Assembly: GCA_947630505.1 (NCBI GenBank) | Contig: CANRHV010000020.1 | Location: forward strand, 1-40,860 | Source: an uncultured Monoglobus sp. | Lineage (GTDB): Bacteria > Bacillota > Clostridia > Monoglobales > Monoglobaceae | Direction of reading: 5' to 3' | Length of the DNA: 40,860 nt | Shown here: positions 12,414 to 31,618 of the stretch, piece by piece | How the letters are laid out: every line of letters starts with the position of its first letter | Numbering within the stretch: position 1 is the first letter of the stretch | Program-made: the position numbers and the translations under genes | Notes under the pieces: model-generated | What the model saw: the letters and a program-made list of their open reading frames with translations, nothing else | Databases searched by the model: none | Told to the model about the DNA's origin: nothing

Positions 12414-12597
12414 GCCTCGCCCCTTGGGGAGAGGTGCCCGCTTGCGGACGGAGAGGGGTCAACGTAGGGACTAGAGATTAGTAACTAGGGACTAGGAACC
12501 CCTCTCAGTCACCTTCGGTGACAGCTCTCCCCAAGGGGCGAGCCTGATATCCTCTGTTCGTTCTAGTCCCTAGATCCTATTCCCTAGTCCCTATGTT
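12414..12597. repeat. Composite two-arm element, ACCCCTCTC family (C); inverted twin of 17884-18071
   Basis: The left arm (minus-strand reading) has hinge CCG with the hairpin TCCGC-AA-GCGGG and linker CACCT. The core starts at 12461 with AACGTAGGGACTAG. The right arm has hinge AG with TCACC-TTC-GGTGA and linker CAGCT. Bases 12414-12545 match the reverse complement of 17940-18071 at 131 of 132 positions. The tail (12546-12597) is also related and runs into the 3' end of the nnrE coding frame, supplying its last codons and stop. Confidence 0.9.
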
Positions 12598-17904: not shown

Positions 17905-18071
17905 GGTCTAGGGACCAGGAATATCATACGGTTTATATTAGGCTCGCCCCTTGGGGAGAGCTGTCACCGAAGGTGACTGAGAGGGGTTCCTAGTCCCTAG
18001 TTACTAATCTCTAGTCCCTACGTTGACCCCTCTCCGCCCGCAAGCGGGCACCTCTCCCCAAGGGGCGAGGC
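17884..18071. repeat. Composite two-arm element, ACCCCTCTC family (D); inverted twin of 12414-12597
   Basis: It starts with AACGTAGGGACTGG inside the 3' end of the TtcA gene. The left arm, from 17940, has heavy palindrome, linker CAGCT, the TCACC/GGTGA hairpin and hinge AG. The core ends with a reversed AACGTAG motif at 18024. The right arm has hinge CCG, the CCCGC-AA-GCGGG hairpin, linker CACCT and heavy palindrome. The only difference from copy C over 132 bases is a C/T change in a hairpin stem that can still pair as G-U in RNA. Confidence 0.9.
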
Positions 18072-19956: not shown

Positions 19957-21793
19957 CCCCTCCGAACGACGCCGCGCCGCAGCCGCCGCATTTTTCGCGG
20001 CAGTCGGGAGTGGTCTTTTCCTCGTACGCCCTCTTGTGCTCTTTTATCAGATACGACTTGGGCACGCCGATATCGGCGTAGTCCCAGGGCAGTATCTCGT
20101 CGTAGGGTATTCTGCGATTCGCGTAAAACGAGGGGTCTATGTTGTTTACCCTGAAAGCCTCCAGCCATTTTTCGTAATCGAAAAAGTCGCTCCAGCCGTC
20201 GAACTTGCAGCCCAGCTCATGGGCGGTGATAAGCACCTCCGACAGCCGTCTGTCGCCCTTGGCGAACACCGCCTCAAGCAGACTGATGTCGCTGTTGTGC
20301 CAATTGTACACTATCTTTTTCGAGCGGATATTTTCTTTCAGGAATCGCGCCTTGTCCTCCATTTCGGAGATAAGGTTCTGCGGCTCCCATTGAAACGGCG
20401 TGAAAGGCTTGGGCACAAAGAAAGAGGTGCTGACGGTTATGCTGACGCTCCTGCCTTTGCGCTCATCGGGCGGTATCGAGAAAAATCCCTCGTCGATCAC
20501 TTTTTTCGCAAGATCGGCTATGCCCTTAACGTCGTCGTAGGTCTCGGTGGGCAGACCCAGCATAAAGTAGAGCTTTATGCGGTTATACCCGCCGCCGAAT
20601 GCGATCCTCGACGTTCTGATGAGGTCGCTTTCTATGACGTTTTTGTTTATAACGTCGCGGAGCCGCTGGGTGCCCGCCTCGGGAGCGAAGGTCAGACCGC
20701 TTTTTTTCACCTTTTGCACCTTTTCCATAAGCTCCATTGAAAAATTGTCCACCCTCAGCGACGGCAGCGACAGATTGATGCGCTTGTCGACCGTCATGCC
20801 GAGCAGCCTGTCGATCAGTTCCTGAAGCTCGCGATAGTCGCTGGTCGAGAGCGACGACAGCGACATCTCCTCGTAGCCCGTGTTTCTGATGCAGCCGTCG
20901 GCTATGCCGCACAGCCGATCAACCGACCGCTCGCGTACAGGGCGGTAGATATACCCCGCCTGACAGAATCGGCAGCCGCGGATGCAGCCGCGGAACAGCT
21001 CGAGCATGATGCGGTCGTGTACCGTCTCCATAAACGGAACGATCAGCTTTTCGGGCGCGTAGCACTTGTCAAAATCGAGTATTATCCGCTTTCTGACCTG
21101 TTTGGGCACGCCCGGGCGGTTGGGCTCAAAGCGCTTTATCGTGTTGTCGTCATTATATTCCACGTCGTAGAATTTCGGCACGTATATGCCGCCGAGGGAG
21201 ACCAGCGACATCAAAAAATCGTCGCGGCTCTTTCCGCTGCCGCGCCATTTTTTGTATTCGTCCATGATCTCGCCGTTGACTTCCTCACCCTCGCCGAGGA
21301 TAAAGAAATCCACCAGCTCGGCCAACGGCTCGGCGTGATAGGCGCAGGGGCCGCCGCAGCATACAAACGGGTCGCCCTCGCCGCGCTCGCGGGTCCTGAG
21401 CGGGATCCCGGCCAAATCGAGCATGTTGACAACGTTTGAGTAGCTCATCTCGTATTGCAGGGTAAAGCCCACGATGTCAAATTCCCTGACCGGCGCGCAG
21501 CTTTCCATCGAGAGCAGGGGAATATCCCGCTCCCGCATAAGCCTTTCCATGTCGTCCCAGGGCGCGAACACGCGCTCGCACACCGTGTCGTCCCGCTCGT
21601 TGAGCATGTGGTACAGTATTTTCATGCCCAGGTGCGACATTCCCACCTCGTAAACGTCGGGAAAGCAAAAGGCGAACGACATCATATCGTCGGTCTTTTT
21701 CTTGTGGACGCTGCCGAACTCGTTTCCTATATAGCGCGCGGGTTTCTGCACCCGACGCAGGCAGTCCTCATAATCGGTTCTGTAGTCTCTCAT
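19940..21793 (-). CDS. TIGR03960 family B12-binding-type radical SAM protein
   Basis: A 617-residue radical SAM enzyme. Residues about 20-190 form a cobalamin-binding-like Rossmann domain (CFPDVYEVGMSHLGMKIL). The SAM cluster motif CIRGCRFC gives C270, C274 and C277, followed by QAGYIYRPVRERS, which is typical of this family. The radical SAM barrel extends to about 480, and the C terminus carries a cysteine cluster (CREKCGGCGAA). The substrate is unknown. The ATG overlaps the stop of the small gene upstream in an ATGA, and GAGGTAAC lies upstream. It is usually the first gene of its operon, so a toxin-like cassette directly upstream and overlapping is unusual. Confidence 0.92.
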   Translation of the reverse strand: MRDYRTDYEDCLRRVQKPARYIGNEFGSVHKKKTDDMMSFAFCFPDVYEVGMSHLGMKILYHMLNERDDTVCERVFAPWDDMERLMRERDIPLLSMESCAPVREFDIVGFTLQYEMSYSNVVNMLDLAGIPLRTRERGEGDPFVCCGGPCAYHAEPLAELVDFFILGEGEEVNGEIMDEYKKWRGSGKSRDDFLMSLVSLGGIYVPKFYDVEYNDDNTIKRFEPNRPGVPKQVRKRIILDFDKCYAPEKLIVPFMETVHDRIMLELFRGCIRGCRFCQAGYIYRPVRERSVDRLCGIADGCIRNTGYEEMSLSSLSTSDYRELQELIDRLLGMTVDKRINLSLPSLRVDNFSMELMEKVQKVKKSGLTFAPEAGTQRLRDVINKNVIESDLIRTSRIAFGGGYNRIKLYFMLGLPTETYDDVKGIADLAKKVIDEGFFSIPPDERKGRSVSITVSTSFFVPKPFTPFQWEPQNLISEMEDKARFLKENIRSKKIVYNWHNSDISLLEAVFAKGDRRLSEVLITAHELGCKFDGWSDFFDYEKWLEAFRVNNIDPSFYANRRIPYDEILPWDYADIGVPKSYLIKEHKRAYEEKTTPDCREKCGGCGAASFGGGVCFE

Positions 21794-22035
21794 CTGTTAC
21801 CTCGTTTTTGTAAATTTAATTTAAACAGCTCGGATTCATTTTCGATCAAATCATTTGCGAGATATTTAAAATCCATATTCTCAATTCCGTATGAGCCGTC
21901 ATTGATTTGTCGCGCAAGCCTGCTTTTGTAATAGATATTCAAAGCGTCTCGCAGCGAAATATTTTTAATTTTTGCGACCTGTGTTATAATATCGTCCTCT
22001 AAATTCTGTTTGTATACGGAATCCATATCATTCAT
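21790..22035 (-). CDS. Small protein, third member of a DUF3791/DUF3990 cassette
   Basis: An 81-residue acidic/helical protein that I cannot assign to a named family with certainty. It begins with MNDMDSVYKQNLEDDIITQV; later IKNISLRDALNIYYKSRLA resembles the short helical partners found beside DUF3990 genes. No signal peptide, membrane segment or catalytic motif is seen. Its ATG lies 2 bases after the stop of the frameshifted DUF3990 frame, and its stop overlaps the TIGR03960 start (ATGA). I infer an antitoxin-like or accessory role from position only. Confidence 0.6.
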   Translation of the reverse strand: MNDMDSVYKQNLEDDIITQVAKIKNISLRDALNIYYKSRLARQINDGSYGIENMDFKYLANDLIENESELFKLNLQKRGNR

Positions 22036-22037
22036 GA

Positions 22038-22519
22038 TTATTCACCAACCTTATATGATTCGACATAATTCAGCGCGGTGTCGAGCACGGCTTGATTTAC
22101 AAAGCAGATTTGGTCATTCATTTTGTAAAACCTCAATTCTTCAAGGACTTTGGATTTGTTCCATATGCCGCGCGCGTACATATCTATGGTTTTAAAAAAT
22201 CATCATTTGCAACTTTGCCGATTATCACGTCGTAATTTTTGTAAGATTCGCCGCCTTTGCGGCAGCCGCATACAAAATCAAGCCAATCTTCATTCTCGCT
22301 TTCAAATCTCAGCACATTGATATTATTGTCTGAAATATCCATTTCGTAAACGTTAACAACGGGAGAACGCCGCATTCTGACAGCCTTGCGTTTTGCCCAT
22401 CTCTCGGCTTGATCTTTGTAGGTAGTAACATAGAATCCCGAGCCAAAATCCAGAAATTTTTTGGAAAAGGCGGTATTCGGTTTTTCTATTTCCAAAACGG
22501 AACCGTGATACACGATCAT
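22038..22519 (-). CDS. DUF3990 (ADP-ribosyltransferase-fold) protein interrupted by a -1 frameshift
   Basis: The ATG at 22519 opens a frame with the DUF3990 signature MIVYHGSVLEIEKPN and FGSGFYVTTYKDQAERWA, the latter resembling the His and Tyr motifs of ADP-ribosyltransferase folds. This frame stops at 22184 after 111 codons (DDFLKP). The typical C-terminal half is present in the -1 frame, directly continuing as TIDMYARGIWNKSKVLEEL and ending with ALNYVESYKVGE at 22038. The junction is TTT TTA AAA C, a canonical -1 slippery heptamer (T TTA AAA). With one slip the product is 160 residues, the usual family length. It may be programmed recoding, a recent inactivating indel, or an assembly error in a homopolymer. 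The start overlaps the DUF3791 stop by 4 bases (ATGA). Confidence 0.8.
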
Positions 22520-22740
22520 ACCGATACACCCCGCTCTCTGACAAATTCGGTTATGTCCTCCACAAGGTATTCGCTGCCCAATGTGTGAAGCGTGTCGTAG
22601 CACGAAATAATATAGTCGTCAAATATTCCCGTGGAATTTAAAATATAATAAACTTCCGACGGGGCGACTTTCCAGTTTTCGGCTAAAATATATATTAAAA
22701 ATAAAGAAAATTTAAGCTCTTTGTCTGTAAACACGTTCAT
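22516..22740 (-). CDS. DUF3791 family protein, likely partner/antitoxin of DUF3990
   Basis: A 74-residue helical protein with the DUF3791 pattern: a hydrophobic helix (FSLFLIYILAENWKVAPSEVY), then IFDDYIISCYDTLHTLGSEYLVEDITEFV (shown in parts: SCYDTLHTLG and VEDITEFV). The family is commonly encoded directly upstream of DUF3990 in Clostridia. I take ATG at 22740 as the start; a GTG one codon earlier (22743) is also possible, and neither has a strong ribosome binding site. It leads a minus-strand cassette coupled by 4-base overlap to DUF3990. An antitoxin role is inferred from size and gene order, not shown. Confidence 0.72.
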   Translation of the reverse strand: MNVFTDKELKFSLFLIYILAENWKVAPSEVYYILNSTGIFDDYIISCYDTLHTLGSEYLVEDITEFVRERGVSV

Positions 22741-22768
22741 CACCGATTTCTTTTATTTTTCTGAATAT

Positions 22769-22797
22769 AGCATAGCATAAAATTTTTGTAAAATCAA
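22769..22797 (-). promoter_or_regulatory. Possible promoter of the DUF3791-DUF3990 cassette
   Basis: On the minus strand TTGATT (22797-22792), a 17-base spacer, then TATGCT (22774-22769), with TATATT a few bases further on. It is a weak match, but it is the best candidate before the minus-strand cluster. Confidence 0.4.
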
Positions 22798-29421: not shown

Positions 29422-30535
29422 GTGATAGCATTCGACGAATACAAGCTCGGGCTTGAAAATATGCAAAAAGATATTACGGAACTGAGGGATTCACTTTAAC
29501 TTGGCCGCGCTTAGCGACGAGATAGCCGCGCTTGAGAAAGAGAGCTTCGAGCCCGATTTCTATTCCGACATGGAAAAGGCGGGGCGTACCCTTCAAAAAA
29601 TAAAGGGCCTCAAGGACAAGGTCGCGGCCTTTGACGACTTGTACTCAAAGTGGGAGGACTTAACCGCCCTTGTGGAACTGGGCAACGAGGAGGAGGATGA
29701 AAGCCTGCTCGACGAGGTAAAGCCCGGATATAAGGAGCTCAAGCAGGCGATCGACGCCATGAAGCTCGATACCCTGCTTTCGGGCAAATACGACAGACTG
29801 AACGCCATAGTGACCCTGCACTCGGGCGCGGGCGGCACCGAGGCTCAGGACTGGTGCGAGATGCTTTACCGCATGTACAACATGTGGGCCGACCGCCGCG
29901 GCTTTAAAACCGAGGTCATAGACTATCTGGACGGCGAGGAGGCGGGCATCAAAAGCGTCACGTTTTCAATAAGCGGCCTCAACGCCTACGGATATATGCA
30001 GTCCGAAAAGGGCGTACACCGTCTGGTGCGCATTTCCCCGTTCGATTCGGCGGCGAGGCGGCACACGTCTTTCGCGTCCTGCGAGGTCGTGCCCGAGCTC
30101 GACGAGGAGCTGGACGTTGAGATAAATCCCGACGATCTGAGGATCGACACCTACCGTTCAAGCGGAGCGGGCGGACAGCACATCAACAAGACCGAGTCGG
30201 CCATAAGGATAACTCATATTCCCACGGGCATTGTAGTCACCTGTCAGAACGAGCGCAGCCAGCACAAGAACAAGGAGACCGCCATGAAGGTTCTAAAGTC
30301 CAAGCTGGTGGAGATAGCCGAGCGCGAGCAGAAGGACAGGATCGACGACCTAAAGGGCGTCCAGACCGAGATCGCGTGGGGCAGCCAGATACGCTCCTAT
30401 GTGTTCCATCCATACACAATGGTAAAAGACCATAGAACGGGCTACGAGGTCGGCAACGTGAACGCGGTCATGAACGGCGACATCAACGGATTTATCAACG
30501 CCTACCTAAAGGCGAAATCCAAAGGCGAGATTTAA
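29422..30535 (+). CDS. prfB: Peptide chain release factor 2, made through a +1 programmed frameshift
   Basis: Release factor for UGA and UAA codons. The first frame starts at GTG 29422 (after GAGGTG) and encodes 25 residues ending RDSL, then TAA (29497-29499). A +1 slip at CTT continues as NLAALSDEIAALEKESF to the end; total about 370 residues, as usual. The main frame has the stop-recognition motif SPF (VRISPFDSA) and the peptidyl-hydrolysis motif GGQ ([14 protein letters not shown]). This is the classic RF2 autoregulation: low RF2 lets the ribosome pause and slip. The in-frame stop here is TAA, not the usual TGA. It lies 34 bases after secA and 12 bases before prfA. Confidence 0.95.
29481..29500 (+). 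promoter_or_regulatory. prfB +1 recoding site
   Basis: A Shine-Dalgarno-like GAGGGA (29484-29489), then CTT TAA C (29494-29500). The spacing from the SD-like element to CTT is longer than in the E. coli site, and the stop is TAA. Slip of the tRNA on CTT to TTT moves reading to the AAC codon at 29498. Confidence 0.85.
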
Positions 30536-30547
30536 AGGAGTTAACAT

Positions 30548-31618
30548 ATGTTTGAAAAGCTTTCATTCTTAGAGGAGCAGTTCGAGGAGCTTGCGCGCAA
30601 GATCAGCGACCCCGAGATCATAGCCGATCAGGAGACGTGGCGCAAGCTGTGCAAGGAGCATTCCGATCTGACCCCGATAGTTGAAAAATACAGAGAGTAT
30701 AAAAAGAACAAAGAGACGATAGACGACGCGGCCGCCATGATGGACGACCCCGAGACCGACAAGGAGTTCCGCGAAATGCTGGTCGAGGAGACCAAAGAGG
30801 CCAAGGCCAATATCGAGAAAATAGAAGAAGAACTCAAGATCCTGCTTCTGCCCAAGGACCCCAACGACGACAAAAATGTTATGGTCGAGATCCGCGGCGG
30901 AGCGGGCGGCGACGAGGCCGCGCTGTTCGCGGGCGACCTATACAGAATGTATTCCATGTACGCCGACTCAAAGCGCTGGAAAACCGAGGTGCTGAGCCTT
31001 AATGAGATCGGCATCGGCGGCATAAAAGAGATAACGTTTATGATAAACGGCGAGGGCGCCTACAGCCGCCTGAAATTCGAGAGCGGCGTCCACCGCGTTC
31101 AGCGAGTGCCCGAGACCGAGTCGAGCGGCAGGATACACACCTCGACCGTGACCGTGGCGGTGCTGCCCGAGGTCGACGACGTGGAGGTCGAGATCAATCC
31201 CGACGATCTGGAGATCGACACCTATCGTTCAAGCGGAGCGGGCGGCCAGCATATCAACAAGACCGAGTCGGCCATAAGAATAACCCACAAGCCCACGGGC
31301 ATCGTGGTGACCTGCCAGGACGAGCGCAGCCAGCACAAGAACCGCGAGGCGGCCATGAAGATGCTGCGCTCAAGACTGTACGACAAGATGGAGCAGGAGC
31401 GCAACGCGGCGATCGCGGCCGACAGAAAGAGCCAGGTGGGAACCGGCGACCGCAGCGAGCGCATCAGGACCTACAACTACCCCCAGGGCAGGATGACCGA
31501 CCACAGGATCGGCCTGACGCTGTATAAGCTGGAGCAGATATTAAACGGCGACCTTGACGAGATCATCGACGCCCTTATAACCACAGACCAAAGCGAAAAA
31601 CTAAAACGCACAGAATAA
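30548..31618 (+). CDS. prfA: Peptide chain release factor 1
   Basis: A 356-residue factor that recognises UAA and UAG and releases the finished peptide. The PxT-type recognition motif is [15 protein letters not shown], and the GGQ loop is [17 protein letters not shown]. The N-terminal coiled domain 1 and the C-terminal [17 protein letters not shown] are typical. ATG follows AAAGGAG. It directly follows prfB, so both release factors are made from one operon. The methyltransferase gene prmC, a common neighbour of prfA, is missing; instead the TAA stop overlaps the start of the sua5 fusion by one base. Confidence 0.97.

What the first reader, a model, noticed from the sequence alone, without database searches (positions are those of the whole stretch)
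22184..22200. DUF3990 toxin-like gene split by a -1 frameshift at a canonical slippery heptamer
The 0 frame (from 22519) stops at 22184, and the missing half of the domain lies in the -1 frame to 22038. The junction TTT TTA AAA C contains T TTA AAA, in the right phase for -1 slippage. The next gene starts 2 bases after the -1 frame stop, as if the long product were the normal one. Either the full toxin is made at a low recoded rate, or it was inactivated by one base in a homopolymer.
Basis: partly seen in the sequence, partly recalled or inferred. Interest (0 to 1): 0.65.

Follow-up and report, generated by a model that had tools for sequence, protein, structure and literature searches.

The report
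Toxin gene broken by one-base loss
A small bacterial toxin gene of a known three-gene toxin-antitoxin-like cassette has lost one base and so its last third; the 'slippery' sequence at the break is a by-product of that loss and not a conserved frameshift signal, so the finding is ordinary.

Summary
In detail: a DUF3990 (PF13151) gene on the minus strand stops at 22184, its C-terminal third continues in the -1 frame to 22038, and T TTA AAA (22196-22190) lies in slippage phase. The recoding reading is not supported. Three same-genus orthologues (Monoglobus MAGs, 87-95% identical over the N-terminal part) sit at the same locus with one uninterrupted 160-codon frame. Aligned DNA shows the window one base shorter at the junction, and the relatives' frame holds no slippery heptamer. 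No stable downstream RNA structure is predicted. Of 79 assessable wider relatives, 75 have an intact frame; broken ones break elsewhere. Even the slipped product would carry F108 where 47/47 relatives have V or I. The heptamer is thus a by-product of a one-base loss. The truncated protein lacks the invariant Q137 and the last strands of the ADP-ribosyltransferase fold, so it is probably inactive. The gene belongs to a three-gene cassette matching PADLOC's phage-defence candidate PDC-M13, inserted between promoter and coding region of a radical-SAM gene and absent from that site in at least five congeners. A second, intact DUF3990 copy lies elsewhere in this genome. A consensus error cannot be excluded without reads. 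Low interest.

The parts
22516..22743 (-). DUF3791 (PF12668) small protein, first gene of the cassette, probable antitoxin or partner
   Evidence: PF12668 67.3 bits; PADLOC PDC-M13A 68.9 bits
22184..22519 (-). DUF3990 toxin-like gene, 0-frame part, 111 codons plus TAG
   Evidence: PF13151 130.5 bits over positions 1-109; PADLOC PDC-M13B 132.5 bits
22190..22196 (-). T TTA AAA heptamer in -1 slippage phase; a by-product of the one-base loss, absent from the orthologues' frame
22038..22190 (-). C-terminal part of the DUF3990 domain in the -1 frame, including the codon for the invariant Q137
   Evidence: PF13151 112-148, 25.3 bits; alignment A3
21790..22035 (-). third small protein of the cassette, probable antitoxin or partner; its own stop has shifted in this genome by a substitution and a one-base indel near 21816
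   Evidence: PADLOC PDC-M13C 31.7 bits; alignment A1
22764..22792 (-). promoter-like site (TTTACA, 17 nt, TG before TATATT); the region is shared by genomes with and without the cassette

Best explanation
This is a broken allele of an ordinary DUF3990 ADP-ribosyltransferase-like toxin gene in a three-gene PDC-M13-type cassette (DUF3791, DUF3990, small third protein). A single base was lost at the junction in this lineage. Translation ends at TAG 22184, giving a 111-residue protein without the last third of the fold, including the invariant Q137 and the final strands (shown by alignment and model), and therefore presumably without enzyme activity (inferred). The slippery heptamer and the -1 continuation are what a one-base loss at this T/A-rich spot leaves behind. 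The cassette is dispensable in the genus and this copy is probably decaying (inferred).
For: Three orthologues at the same locus have one open frame, with the window one base shorter exactly at the junction and no in-phase heptamer in their frame. In 13,361 aligned bases against the nearest relative there are 7 gaps, and this is the only one that breaks the inside of a gene. The third gene of the same cassette carries another indel that moves its stop. 75 of 79 assessable relatives have an intact frame, and split members break at other places without a shared heptamer. The downstream RNA is no more stable than shuffles (z +1.33 and -0.07). Q137 is invariant in 47/47, and position 108 is V or I in 47/47 whereas the slipped product would have F. 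The site is empty in G003, G011, G004, G010 and G005.
Against: Whether the base is really missing in the cell cannot be checked without reads. Polarised substitutions (window 6 synonymous and 8 non-synonymous; G009 9 and 4) only hint at relaxed selection (Fisher P = 0.25). Low-level spontaneous slippage at T TTA AAA is physically possible.
Confidence: 0.7

Rival explanations
1. Consensus or assembly error in a draft genome: the real gene is intact and the toxin is made normally.
For: The genome is a 119-contig draft whose nearest relatives are metagenome assemblies. A singleton frameshift confirmed by homology is often an error according to PMC3711429. The break is at a T/A run.
Against: No other gene-breaking indel in 13.4 kb against the nearest relative. 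The difference is not a plain change of run length, because the relatives' run is interrupted. A second change lies in the same cassette.
Confidence: 0.23
2. Programmed or 'savior' -1 ribosomal frameshifting at T TTA AAA makes a small amount of full-length toxin.
For: Heptamer in correct phase; the -1 product would have exactly the length of the relatives (160 aa).
Against: Not conserved in any relative; no downstream structure above shuffles; no Shine-Dalgarno-like stimulator visible upstream (sequence); the product would carry F108 where 47/47 relatives have V or I.
Confidence: 0.04
3. Stop-restart: ribosomes that end at TAG 22184 restart at ATG 22181 and make the C-terminal piece separately; the two pieces reassemble.
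For: An ATG follows the stop after two bases and opens a 47-codon frame to 22038.
Against: The ATG is an ordinary internal Met codon of the intact orthologues, and no ribosome binding site is evident.
Confidence: 0.03

Closest known systems
PDC-M13 (PADLOC phage-defence candidate; DUF3791-DUF3990-small protein cassettes)
   Same: All three genes match PDC-M13 models. PDC-M13 is common, with 3,324 loci in a rumen survey (PMC13356809).
   Different: The toxin-like gene is split by a frameshift, and the third gene has an altered stop in this genome.
DUF3990 family (PF13151)
   Same: Both halves of the domain are present and collinear.
   Different: They lie in two frames; family members are normally one frame.
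RES-type and other ADP-ribosyltransferase toxins of toxin-antitoxin pairs (ParT, MbcT, P. putida RES)
   Same: The model of the intact orthologue has this fold: VIA-align Z 9.6 (128 residues, 3.5 A), 9.2 (125, 3.3 A) and 8.2 (123, 3.9 A); Foldseek E 1.8e-4 to P. putida RES.
   Different: Sequence identity 6-10%; different partner proteins; no solved DUF3990 structure found by sequence.
Genes with programmed -1 frameshifting (dnaX-type, insertion-sequence transposases)
   Same: An in-phase X XXY YYZ heptamer at the frame junction.
   Different: Not conserved, no stimulatory structure found, relatives uninterrupted.

Membership tests
Programmed -1 ribosomal frameshift gene | X XXY YYZ heptamer in the correct phase at the junction | tested here: met
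   T TTA AAA at 22196-22190
Programmed -1 ribosomal frameshift gene | Frameshift site conserved among homologues (criterion of PMC3711429) | tested here: not met
   Three orthologues uninterrupted without the heptamer in frame; 75 of 79 relatives intact, split ones break elsewhere
Programmed -1 ribosomal frameshift gene | Downstream stimulatory stem-loop or pseudoknot | tested here: inconclusive
   No stem-loop stability above shuffles (z +1.33 and -0.07); pseudoknots were not modelled
Programmed -1 ribosomal frameshift gene | Trans-frame product made in cells | not testable with these tools
   needs a reporter or proteomics
DUF3990 (PF13151) | Profile match over the curated cut-off | tested here: met
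   130.5 bits against a cut-off of 32.2 for the 0-frame part; the -1 part 25.3 bits
DUF3990 (PF13151) | Complete domain in one frame | tested here: not met
   0-frame covers 1-109 of 152, the rest is in the -1 frame; so it is a broken member, not an intact one
PDC-M13 cassette | Three adjacent genes that match the PDC-M13 component models | tested here: met
   PDC-M13A, B and C hits for the three ORFs
PDC-M13 cassette | Anti-phage activity | not testable with these tools
   candidate status only; no test of function found in the papers searched
ADP-ribosyltransferase toxins of toxin-antitoxin pairs (RES/ParT/MbcT type) | ART fold | tested here: met
   model of orthologue L058 (pLDDT 91.4) matches ParT, MbcT and RES; the truncated window protein itself was not modelled
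ADP-ribosyltransferase toxins of toxin-antitoxin pairs (RES/ParT/MbcT type) | Toxic NAD-dependent activity neutralised by a partner | not testable with these tools
   needs expression tests

The most novel reading that the evidence does not exclude
A one-base loss has turned the toxin gene into one that is expressed only by rare -1 slippage at T TTA AAA, so that a trace of (altered) toxin keeps the cassette active at a tolerable dose: a 'savior' frameshift in a toxin-antitoxin-like module.
Probability: 0.04. Interest if true: 0.5.

Novelty: new member of a known kind. Interest (0 to 1): 0.14.

Why it matters
It shows that a textbook slippery heptamer at a frame junction can be a by-product of the indel itself, and that a same-locus comparison settles it quickly. 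The cassette is a clear presence/absence case of a PDC-M13-type module placed between the promoter and coding region of a chromosomal gene, with one copy that is probably decaying.

Tried and rejected
Programmed frameshifting: rejected on lack of conservation and no structure. Operon spacing as evidence that the long product is normal: rejected, because the spacing is the same in the intact relatives. General indel-rich assembly: not supported by the 13.4-kb comparison. Search for a copy of the same allele: nothing in plasmids, only weak partial hits in viral contigs, and no second copy of the locus in the own genome. No solved DUF3990 structure was found by sequence. The papers that name DUF3990 (4) and DUF3791 (1) were seen by title and abstract only, did not look like tests of this module, and were not read in full.

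Full report
Observation. On the minus strand the ORF from ATG 22519 reads 111 codons and stops at TAG 22186-22184. Its product matches PF13151 (DUF3990) positions 1-109 with 130.5 bits; the -1 frame to TAA 22040-22038 matches positions 112-148 with 25.3 bits. The junction contains T TTA AAA at 22196-22190 in the phase needed for -1 slippage. Upstream lies DUF3791 (PF12668, 67.3 bits), downstream a small ORF from 22035.

Relatives at the same locus. Twelve genomes of the genus are held, the window's own included (Monoglobus, by the titles of matching records). Three carry the orthologue upstream of the same radical-SAM gene: G009 (95% identity over the N-terminal part), G006 (90%) and G002 (87%), each with one uninterrupted frame of 160 codons. 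The DNA alignment puts a single one-base gap in the window exactly at the junction. In the relatives' frame the same T/A-rich stretch encodes V-F-K-T and holds no in-phase X XXY YYZ. The heptamer thus comes into slippage phase only through the one-base loss. The short distance to the next gene is the same or shorter in the relatives (two bases in G009 and G006, one in G002), so it is inherited from the intact operon.

Is it recoding? (a) Conservation: of 80 loci found in a collection of one genome per species, 79 could be judged and 75 keep an open frame through the C-terminal motif. The other four are truncated, frameshifted or fused at other positions, and five split members from a survey of 391 genomes of the class break at other profile positions without a shared heptamer. 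(b) Structure: the 87 and 57 nt downstream fold no better than shuffles (z +1.33 and -0.07), as in the relatives; pseudoknots were not modelled. (c) Chance: in-phase X XXY YYZ heptamers occur at 79 of 11,717 codon sites of the window's genes, 3 of them TTTAAAA. (d) Product: a slipped product would have the right length but F at position 108, where 47 of 47 relatives have V or I. By the published criteria for programmed frameshifts (conserved site in several homologues; PMC3711429) this is a singleton, hence an indel or a sequence error. 'Savior' indels with low compensatory frameshifting are known (PMC5009743), so a trace of slippage cannot be excluded.

Real allele or error? The genome is a draft of 119 contigs. 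Against the nearest relative, 13,361 aligned bases hold 7 gaps: two cancel each other, others lie between or at the ends of genes, and only the one at 22198 breaks the inside of a gene. A further indel at 21816, with a substitution, removes the stop of the third gene of the same cassette and extends it to a TGA that overlaps the next start codon. Two such changes in one kilobase, and a non-significant excess of non-synonymous changes in the cassette (6 synonymous and 8 non-synonymous in the window lineage, 9 and 4 in G009; P = 0.25), fit decay somewhat better than random errors, but reads are needed.

What the protein is. The intact orthologue (L058) was modelled from 47 relatives (pLDDT 91.4, pTM 0.86). 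It has an ADP-ribosyltransferase fold, nearest to ParT (Z 9.6, 128 residues, 3.5 A), MbcT (Z 9.2, 125 residues, 3.3 A) and P. putida RES (Z 8.2, 123 residues, 3.9 A), with Foldseek E 1.8e-4 for RES. No solved relative was found by sequence. The truncation removes helix 122-129, strand 137-140 with the invariant Q137, helix 143-149 and strand 150-157, and cuts helix 106-116. Loss of activity is inferred from this and was not tested. The role of Q137 in catalysis is an inference from its invariance and its place near the end of the ART fold.

The cassette. All three ORFs match PADLOC's candidate PDC-M13, which is widespread (3,324 loci in a rumen survey, PMC13356809). In G003, G011, G004, G010 and G005 the corresponding promoter region is followed directly by the radical-SAM start, without the cassette. 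In the window, G009, G006 and G002 the cassette sits between them. It is thus dispensable and probably co-transcribed with the radical-SAM gene from a promoter-like site at 22792-22764 (inferred). A second, intact DUF3990 gene (about 42% identical) lies on another contig of this genome between small genes of the same kind, so the genome keeps one complete toxin-like gene of the family.

Verdict. An ordinary broken allele, probably real, with an incidental slippery heptamer.

Noticed in passing
window 21790-22764 (minus strand): The three-gene cassette lies between the promoter region and the start codon of a radical-SAM gene; at least five congeners (L152, L153, L154, L156, L158) have the promoter region directly followed by the gene, an empty site.
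   Followed up: partly
window 21816: The third gene of the cassette has a substitution plus a one-base indel at its end: it loses the relatives' stop and runs on to a TGA that overlaps the start codon of the radical-SAM gene.
   Followed up: partly
L001:1277-2192: A second, intact cassette of small protein, DUF3990 gene and small protein in the same genome, on another contig.
   Followed up: partly
L090:2634-3533: A DUF3990 N-terminal part (about 115 residues) runs in frame into a sequence with a Fic-like motif (HPFQDGNGQTGR): a natural fusion, or a recombination product.
   Followed up: no
window 12482-12547 and 17940-18003: Two short stretches, about 5.4 kb apart, match the same place of relatives in opposite orientation, which points to an inverted repeat around this segment.
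   Followed up: no
window 30082-30289 and 31164-31360: Neighbouring genes share a similar stretch (cross-hits in relatives), probably tandem paralogues.
   Followed up: no
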